Shown in pieces: positions 1 through 1,589 of a stretch of 64,000 nt of DNA. Position 1 is the stretch's first letter, and each line of letters starts with the position of its first letter. The translations under genes were made by a program, and so were the position numbers. Under the pieces are notes generated by a model. The model made no database searches. It was not told where the DNA came from and saw only the letters and a list, made by a program, of their open reading frames with translations. This stretch comes from Muribaculaceae bacterium. Lineage in GTDB: Bacteria; Bacteroidota; Bacteroidia; Bacteroidales; Muribaculaceae. The stretch lies in the NCBI GenBank assembly GCA_022509085.1, contig JAFLTW010000001.1, positions 1-64,000 on the forward strand. The letters are read 5' to 3'.

Positions 1-256
1 CTAATTTTCCTCTAAAAAGTGTATGCGAAATTCCCTGTTATTATGACCAATATGATAATTTTCACAAACTTAGGTGCATAGATATCCTTTCCACGGTCAT
101 TATTCACACATGGAGGCAGATAAAAGTTTGTTATTTTCCTCTACAAGCTTGGATAGCTTATACCGGTGTCCAACTCTTCCCGGCAATTGAGTAAATTTGT
201 AGTACGGGCTCTATGGCACCACAAAATTATTTACCTTCTGCCGAGAAGTATATTTT
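1..256 (-). ncRNA. Candidate IS1111-type bridge RNA region, downstream of the transposase
   Basis: This non-coding stretch follows the transposase stop on the minus strand and is rich in nested hairpins. Hairpin A: an outer 10-bp stem (176-185 with 239-248, one G-U), then GTAAAT/ATTTAC (191-196 with 229-234), then TTGTAGT/ACCACAA (197-203 with 218-224), closing a 14-base loop at 204-217. Hairpin B: AAGTTTGT/ACAAACTT (124-131 with 64-71), an inner CCT..CCA/TGGAGG stem, and a 17-base loop at 94-110. A small hairpin lies at 145-159. The loop of A nearly repeats, in inverted orientation, a sequence at the other IS end (1500-1512). IS1111-group elements are known to carry their bridge RNA in the end downstream of the transposase, so two loop-bearing hairpins fit a donor-loop/target-loop guide RNA. 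That role is inferred; the RNA may extend past the window edge. Confidence 0.5.
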
Positions 257-1514
257 TTAGGTATTGACTTTAGTGACTTTGGCTTCCATTTCCTTTTCTT
301 TCTTTAGTTTCTCAAGATAGAAATCAATGAAGTCCTCTTTTTTTGTCAGCATGTGCCAGATGGCTACCAGTATTTTTCTTGCTATGGCAACCTGTATTTT
401 CATTTTGCTCTTATGCTTGACTGTCACCTGGGTATAGCTGAAGTTTGAAAAGAAACAGTTTCTGGTCCTTGATGCAGACCATGCAATTTCAATCAGCATC
501 TGTCGCAGATATTTGTTGCCGTGCGTTATTTTCCTGCTCTTGTAACGGCCGTTGCTCACATCATTTCTGGGTTTTAGTCCGCACCATCCCACCAGCATTG
601 CAGAGGTGGCGAAGGTCTTCATGTCCACTCCGGTTTCCGCAATTATGGCTGTGGCGGCGCGTTCCTTGACACCGGGTATGGTCTGAAGACGTTTGAATTC
701 GGTAGGGAAATGTTCCTGGCATAGTGCCGTGAGCTTGGTCTGGCAGTCTTGAATCTGTCGTTCTATGATGTCAAGCATCTCGATTGTCTGCCTTATGACG
801 GTGATATCCGTGTCGGAAAAGTTCCCGGTCAGTGAAGCCTTGATAGTATCTTCCCCATGTTTGTTGCGTGTGCGACTATGAACAAATTTGATTAGCATTT
901 CCGGATTCGTTTCTCCGTTGGAAATGGCTCTTACTACCGACTGATAGCTTTTACCGCCTATGGTCGACACATAGTTGCTCAGACGGAAGCCGCATCTCTG
1001 CAGGGCTGCGTCAAGCTTGTTTTTGTTGTAGACCGCATCATGGTTCAAATCGAATATCCTGCGGTTGAGCTTGCGCATGTCCTGCACTATGGGAGAGGGA
1101 ACGAAACTTGCCTTGATGAGATTCTTCAGCACACACTCCGCTATCCACTGGGCATCCTTGATATCGCTCTTGCGTCCGGGAAGCTGCTTGATGAAATACG
1201 GGTTGACAAGTTTGAGATCCATGTAGTCAAACAACTCGTTCCACACCGGTATCCAGTAGACGCCGGTACTTTCCATGGCGGTCTCGGACACACCATACAT
1301 AACCATGTCATCACGCATCTGACGTAACTCGGGGATAAGGGTCCCGTATTTTTTTTCAAGAATAATTTGGCCTGACTCTTCCATAATACAAAGATAAACG
1401 CTATCTTTGTGGACGTCAAGGCCGGCTACGACTCTGTGATTGTCCATAATGAGGAAATTTAAATTAATATTATCACCTCAAAATTAAGTAAAATTGTGAC
1501 ATAGAGCACGTAAT
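200..1514. repeat. Subterminal inverted repeats of the IS element
   Basis: The plus-strand sequence at 1500-1512 (catagagcacgta) matches 12 of 13 bases of the reverse complement of 203-215 (tacgggctctatg). A flanking TTGTG also matches if a 2-base gap is allowed. Subterminal inverted repeats of this size are a hallmark of the IS1111 group of IS110 elements. The coordinates span from one arm to the other, not the exact IS ends; the tips cannot be fixed from one copy. Confidence 0.6.
257..1447 (-). CDS. IS110-family transposase (DEDD recombinase)
   Basis: Transposase of 396 aa, a normal length for IS110/IS1111 elements. The N-terminal RuvC-like DEDD domain starts at 'AGLDVHKDSVYLCIM' with the first catalytic Asp, and continues through 'ESTGVYW' and 'DIKDAQWIAE', which hold the next acidic residues. 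The C-terminal Transposase_20 domain is visible as 'LQTIPGVKERAATAIIAETG' and 'GWCGLKPRNDVSNG', with the serine-bearing end region. These enzymes cut and rejoin DNA under guidance of a bridge RNA encoded in the element. The reading frame is intact, so the copy may be active. It sits upstream of and divergent from the amylase gene. Confidence 0.93.
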   Translation of the reverse strand: MDNHRVVAGLDVHKDSVYLCIMEESGQIILEKKYGTLIPELRQMRDDMVMYGVSETAMESTGVYWIPVWNELFDYMDLKLVNPYFIKQLPGRKSDIKDAQWIAECVLKNLIKASFVPSPIVQDMRKLNRRIFDLNHDAVYNKNKLDAALQRCGFRLSNYVSTIGGKSYQSVVRAISNGETNPEMLIKFVHSRTRNKHGEDTIKASLTGNFSDTDITVIRQTIEMLDIIERQIQDCQTKLTALCQEHFPTEFKRLQTIPGVKERAATAIIAETGVDMKTFATSAMLVGWCGLKPRNDVSNGRYKSRKITHGNKYLRQMLIEIAWSASRTRNCFFSNFSYTQVTVKHKSKMKIQVAIARKILVAIWHMLTKKEDFIDFYLEKLKKEKEMEAKVTKVNT

Positions 1515-1581
1515 TATGGAATTAGAGCGCGTCGGCTTTGATTTTTTTATGCTGCCGGTGTAAAAACTTGCGGTTTTTATA

Positions 1582-1589
1582 TAAATTTG
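1582..1589 (+). promoter_or_regulatory. Bacteroidetes-type -7 box for the amylase gene
   Basis: TAAATTTG matches the TAnnTTTG -7 consensus about 50 bp before the amylase start. No clear TTTG -33 element sits at the usual 19-bp spacing, so this is a modest call. The IS element ends less than 100 bp upstream. Confidence 0.4.

What the first reader, a model, noticed from the sequence alone, without database searches (positions are those of the whole stretch)
1..256. Putative IS1111-type bridge RNA with two loop-bearing hairpins
The end downstream of an intact IS110-family transposase holds two large nested hairpins and a small one in about 250 bases. The loop of the first hairpin matches, inverted, 12 of 13 bases at the opposite IS end, so it could pair with donor DNA. 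That is what a bridge-RNA donor loop would do. The second hairpin (loop 94-110) would then be the target loop. This would be a programmable recombinase pair from a gut Bacteroidales.
Basis: partly seen in the sequence, partly recalled or inferred. Interest (0 to 1): 0.72.

Follow-up and report, generated by a model that had tools for sequence, protein, structure and literature searches.

The report
Jumping gene guided to host promoters
A small mobile DNA element from gut Bacteroidales carries a guide RNA whose sequence tracks its insertion sites, and that guide points it at the core "-7" motif with which these bacteria start many of their genes.

Summary
The window begins at the right end of an IS110-family element (about 6-1585, minus strand; 396-aa transposase). 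A covariance model finds the RNA (129-259) just downstream of the transposase in 28 loci of Bacteroidota, with compensatory changes in its stems. Hairpin 1 is the target loop. Its 5' strand UA-NN-UUUG (222-229) predicts the two bases at the right insertion junction in 25 of 31 elements (5.7 expected); its 3' strand nCAAAN (195-202) predicts the left junction. Empty sites in relatives show insertion inside the AAA of CAAA-NN-TA, the reverse complement of TAnnTTTG, the Bacteroidota -7 promoter box. Insertions sit just upstream of start codons (median 27 nt), apparently including tsaB and guaA. A strand of hairpin 2 matches, in nearly every element, an internal donor-like site 27-30 nt inside the left end; I found no published model for this. 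There are no expression or activity data.

The parts
6..1585 (-). The IS element, counted with one copy of the AAA core (about 1580 bp)
   Evidence: Ends from copies at different sites and empty sites in relatives
257..1447 (-). IS110-family RNA-guided transposase, 396 aa; conserved D11, E59, D95, D98 and the P-x4-S motif (S298)
   Evidence: predicted fold best matches IS621 and ISCro4
129..259 (-). Bridge RNA core
   Evidence: Covariance model hit, 114 bits; covariation in stems
239..248 (-). Outer stem, 5' arm (pairs with 176-186)
   Evidence: covarying helix 1
176..186 (-). Outer stem, 3' arm
222..229 (-). Right target guide UAAUUUUG; [quoted passage not shown]
   Evidence: NN equals the right junction in 25 of 31 elements
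195..202 (-). Left target guide CUACAAA plus one handshake-like base (U)
   Evidence: base -1 15/21, base N1 20/21
205..219 (-).
134..142 (-). Left donor guide AGAGGAAA plus one base; same sequence as the right tip
   Evidence: Direct repeat with the right tip; following base tracks the right junction in 22/31
161..169 (-). Hairpin 2, 5' strand ACACCGGTA; matches the inner left-end site
1553..1561 (-). Inner left-end site ACACCGGCA, 28 nt inside the left tip
1586..1589 (-). CAAA at the left junction (target-derived C plus core AAA)
2..13 (-). Right tip AGAGG-AAA followed by target bases ATTA
   Evidence: C5 and C32 diverge right after it
1574..1580 (-). Short subterminal inverted repeat, left (ATAAAAA); right partner TTTTTA at 13-18
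   Evidence: Sequence
1479..1486 (-). Promoter-like box TAATTTTG upstream of the transposase gene
   Evidence: Sequence; promoter function inferred

Best explanation
This is an IS110-family mobile element whose downstream end encodes a bridge RNA (seekRNA) that the transposase uses as a guide. Hairpin 1 reads the target: its 5' strand (UANNUUUG) pairs with the core and right half on the top strand, and its 3' strand (nCAAA plus one base) pairs with the left half on the bottom strand. Hairpin 2 reads the element's own right tip (AGAGGAAA). The circular element recombines into CAAA-NN-TA at the shared AAA core. That target is the -7 promoter box TAnnTTTG read on the other strand, so the element lands directly upstream of a gene that points away from its left end. 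Because the left end supplies NN-TA after CAAA, each insertion rebuilds a TAnnTTTG box for that gene. Shown here: conservation and covariation of the RNA, tracking of the junctions by the guides, empty sites, and position upstream of genes. Inferred: transcription of the RNA, protein binding, strand exchange, and that the rebuilt box helps keep the gene expressed.
For: RNA: 90% of pair cells paired (75.9% in shuffles), 13 of 20 pairs with changes on both sides; model hits downstream of the transposase in 28 loci, 11 of them not used to build it. Right guide vs right junction 25/31, p < 5e-5; control against the left junction 1/21; 10 of 12 among representatives below 60% identity. Left guide 15/21 and 20/21. 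Natural reprogramming between sisters: L070/L071 (92% identical transposases) and L087/L088 (93%). Empty sites read CAAA-GTTA without interruption. Gene start within 60 nt of the left junction in 25/40 sites against 4/33 right flanks, p = 1e-5. The -7 consensus TAnnTTTG is from PMC7366714. Fold matches IS621 and ISCro4.
Against: No RNA or activity data. Six of 31 right junctions differ from the guide by a base or more, and hold-outs gave one full and one half match. No terminal right-donor guide was found. Promoter function of the target sites is inferred from motif and position; insertions inside genes may be lost by selection, which would also enrich promoters.
Confidence: 0.88

Rival explanations
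1. One reading: the apical loop 203-219 is the donor guide pairing with 1496-1512, and the hairpin at 94-110 is the target loop.
For: 15 of 17 inverted match in this copy, above shuffles.
Against: The site is about 75-90 nt inside the left end; no comparable pairing in 19 relatives; the 94-110 hairpin is outside the conserved RNA and varies in sequence.
Confidence: 0.03
2. The structured region is real, but its UANNUUUG and CAAA motifs are only promoter elements or stem-pairing constraints, not guides.
For: UUUG and CAAA pair with each other in hairpin 1, and TAnnTTTG is itself a promoter consensus.
Against: The NN bases track the right junction 25/31 but not the left junction (1/21). L070/L071 switch guides and junctions together. 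A promoter box or an internal pair would not follow flanking DNA.
Confidence: 0.05
3. About the inner left-end site: the hairpin 2 strand that matches 1553-1561 lets the RNA-protein complex bind upstream of the transposase gene and repress it, and is not part of donor recognition.
For: The site lies between the left tip and the promoter-like box of the transposase, at constant spacing, flanked by inverted repeats like a donor site.
Against: No direct evidence. A displaced right-donor guide explains the same covariation, and no terminal right-donor guide was found.
Confidence: 0.35

Closest known systems
IS1111-group elements with seekRNA (ISEc11, ISPa11, ISKpn4; PMC11187229)
   Same: Guide RNA in the downstream non-coding end; top-strand match lies 5' of the bottom-strand match; the two matches overlap in the target.
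   Different: Transposase 396 aa rather than 330-350; subterminal repeats only 5-7 bp and imperfect; target is a promoter box; an inner left-end match not described there.
IS621 bridge RNA system (IS110 group; PMC11208160, PMC11208158)
   Same: DEDD plus Ser recombinase with matching predicted fold; target and donor loops with left guides read as sense and right guides as antisense; bases that behave like handshake guides.
   Different: RNA at the right rather than the left end; guide order reversed; handshake-like bases sit on the left guides; no terminal right-donor guide found.
TAnnTTTG promoter motif of Bacteroidota (PMC7366714)
   Same: The target CAAANNTA is exactly its reverse complement.
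   Different: That motif is the known -7 element of the primary sigma factor; no paper found links it to RNA-guided insertion.

Membership tests
IS110 family (broad) | DEDD transposase with Transposase_20 C-terminal domain and conserved catalytic residues | tested here: met
IS110 family (broad) | Structured non-coding end with guides to target and donor | tested here: met
   the right-donor guide is not resolved
IS110 family (broad) | Circular intermediate and RNA bound by transposase | not testable with these tools
   Needs experiments
IS1111 group | Long non-coding end downstream of the transposase gene | tested here: met
   About 250 nt downstream, holding the RNA; the left end is also longish (about 140 nt)
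IS1111 group | Top-strand match 5' of bottom-strand match in the RNA | tested here: met
   222-229 precedes 195-202 on the minus strand
IS1111 group | Subterminal inverted repeats of 7-17 bp | tested here: not met
   ATAAAAA against TTTTTA, 5-7 bp, imperfect
IS1111 group | Transposase of 330-350 aa with GL-P----S(T)G motif | tested here: not met
   396 aa; GLKPRNDVSN, so the Ser is present but the following Gly is not
IS110 group (IS621-like) | Bridge RNA in the left (upstream) end, left guide before right guide | tested here: not met
   RNA is downstream and the order is reversed
IS1111 / IS110 groups | Position in a transposase phylogeny with named ISfinder references | not tested
   Named reference sequences could not be collected

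The most novel reading that the evidence does not exclude
The RNA carries an extra guide strand that pairs with a second, internal donor-like site 27-30 nt inside the left end. Donor recognition would then be split between the tip and an inner site (or the complex would control its own gene there), an architecture not described for IS621 or IS1111 elements in the papers read. Together with promoter-box targeting this would be a transposon lineage with RNA-guided access to host promoters.
Probability: 0.4. Interest if true: 0.77.

Novelty: new variant of a known kind. Interest (0 to 1): 0.66.

Why it matters
IS110 elements are known to choose targets by RNA; targets named in the papers read are integron attC sites, REP repeats and parts of other mobile elements. 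Here a whole lineage in Bacteroidota appears aimed at the sigma-factor -7 box, which offers a site upstream of very many genes, and its left end rebuilds that box. That gives a testable explanation for how an insertion sequence can sit directly in front of genes such as tsaB and guaA. It also provides natural pairs of close relatives with switched targets, a recombinase set native to gut Bacteroidales, and an unexplained inner donor match to dissect.

Tried and rejected
Rfam gave no hit. Single-protein scans of genome and viral contigs found nothing; an alignment query worked. A TA-core model, with the left NN taken from the target, was rejected by the empty sites. The hairpin at 94-110 showed no conserved sequence and mixed fold z-scores. 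A terminal right-donor guide was sought; N2 and later positions of the left end show no covariation. Pairing this genome's own left and right flanks through relatives failed. Named IS110/IS1111 reference transposases for a tree could not be collected, so group placement rests on features. A hold-out search by RNA model gave three new loci: one fits fully, one half, one lacks its right end. No paper found ties IS110-family targeting to TAnnTTTG; preprint servers were not searchable.

Full report
WHAT IS IN THE WINDOW. The window is the start of contig C1 of a 36-contig genome. Its family is that of Duncaniella muris, since G090's contig of 191,710 bases equals the D. muris record. The minus strand of 257-1447 encodes a 396-aa IS110-family transposase. 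Its predicted fold best matches the IS621 and ISCro4 recombinases solved with bridge RNA. The contig begins one base beyond the element's right junction because several copies collapse in the assembly: C1, C5 and C32 share the last 127 bases or so and C23 shares the left end.

ELEMENT ENDS. Three copies in a complete relative (G092) and the copies here show a left junction CAAA|NN-TA-N-ATAAAA and a right junction AGAGGAAA|NN-TA. Which bases belong to the target was settled by empty sites. In G119 two homologous loci read TGTCAAAGTTAGC and TGCAAAGTTAGT without interruption; in G155 two read ATGCAAAGGTAC and CCGCAAAGTTAGC. So the target is CAAA-NN-TA and the exchange lies in the shared AAA. In this window the core is at 6-8 and 1586-1588.

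THE RNA. Just downstream of the transposase, elements from Bacteroidales and more distant Bacteroidota share a block in this order: outer stem, UANNUUUG, a variable loop, CCCG, nCAAAN, outer stem, a short hairpin, AGAGGAAA. On 21 sequences 90% of pair cells form standard pairs (75.9% in shuffles, 38-50% when slid), and 13 of 20 pairs show changes on both sides. A covariance model finds 28 loci with E of 1e-9 or better, all just downstream of the transposase, 11 of them not used to build it. Weaker partial hits occur in Sphingobacterium-type elements.

GUIDES. The two variable bases of UANNUUUG, reverse-complemented, equal the two bases at the right junction in 25 of 31 elements (5.7 expected, p < 5e-5). 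With representatives below 60% identity it is 10 of 12 (p = 5e-5). Compared with the left junction the match is 1 of 21. The base before CAAA in the RNA matches the left flank in 15 of 21 (p = 0.001), and the base after it matches the element's first left base in 20 of 21 (p < 5e-5). The base after AGAGGAAA in the RNA matches the right-junction base in 22 of 31 (p < 5e-5). The last two resemble the handshake bases of IS621. Sister elements show natural reprogramming: L070 and L071 (92% identical transposases) differ as TAAA/CAAA and TA/TT in RNA and junctions alike, and L087/L088 (93%) as GA/CA. The guide order is that of IS1111 seekRNAs (PMC11187229); sense left guides and antisense right guides are as in IS621 (PMC11208160).

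TARGET MEANING. CAAANNTA is the reverse complement of TAnnTTTG, the -7 consensus of the Bacteroidota primary sigma factor (PMC7366714). If it acts as a promoter, genes should point away from the left end close by. An ATG opening 100 or more codons lies within 60 nt of the left junction in 25 of 40 sites, against 4 of 33 right flanks (p = 1e-5) and 9 of 43 TANNTTTG motifs of the window (p = 1.5e-4) (sites deduplicated by hand, solo left ends included). My reading of the flanks, from sequence and general knowledge: tsaB, guaA and a glyoxalase-like gene in G092, an amylase and a RhuM-like gene here. At each left junction the element supplies NN-TA, so TAnnTTTG is rebuilt. That this preserves expression is inference; no -33 element is evident in the left end.

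THE INNER SITE. Hairpin 2's 5' strand is identical in sense to a sequence 27-30 nt inside the left end (ACACCGGC, ACGCCCGTT, ATGCCAGTG, ACACATACG, ACACAGACA in different elements; permutation p = 2e-4). It is flanked by inverted AT-rich repeats that resemble the donor junction. No RNA segment was found that tracks the terminal right-donor bases beyond the first. I read it as either a displaced right-donor guide or an operator for the RNA-protein complex; I cannot decide.

The inverted match 203-219/1496-1512 is real here (15 of 17) but lies deep in the left end and has no counterpart in 19 relatives. The 94-110 loop is outside the RNA core. The general idea stands; the loop assignments do not.

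LIMITS. Everything is sequence inference. Left ends were mostly found with a pattern that requires CAAANNTA, so only the N positions and the left flank are independent there; right ends were found without requiring TA, which appears in 29 of 31. Permutations do not fully remove shared ancestry, hence the clustered tests. Formal IS1111 membership fails on repeat length and transposase size. I call it an IS110-family element with an IS1111-like RNA layout.

Noticed in passing
window 203-219 and 1496-1512: In this copy the RNA's variable loop is antisense (15 of 17) to DNA just upstream of the transposase promoter-like box; the second copy (C23) matches 16 of 17. Not conserved in relatives; could be recent local regulation or chance built on a conserved motif.
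   Followed up: partly
L171-L185, e.g. L178, L182, L185 (Muribaculaceae relatives): Many genomes hold only the left end plus a piece of the transposase gene, and some hold MITE-like mini elements of about 80-280 bp with both tips. Their left junctions are again CAAANNTA, mostly in front of a gene start.
   Followed up: partly
window 1479-1486 and 222-229: The element carries its own target sequence CAAAATTA twice, in the transposase promoter-like box and in the RNA gene; how self-insertion is avoided is unclear.
   Followed up: no
window 95-117; spacers in L055, L064, L068, L079, L170: A hairpin of varying sequence often sits 10-25 nt after the RNA core; it may mark the RNA's 3' end.
   Followed up: partly
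window 1496-1512 and left ends of relatives: A motif GTGCTCTnnGTCACAATTTT is conserved upstream of the transposase start in close relatives; possible operator.
   Followed up: no
own genome C12:246053 and C36:82687 (L248, L249): Probable decayed left ends of related elements in the same genome, again with TTTGCA and a gene start on the outer side.
   Followed up: partly
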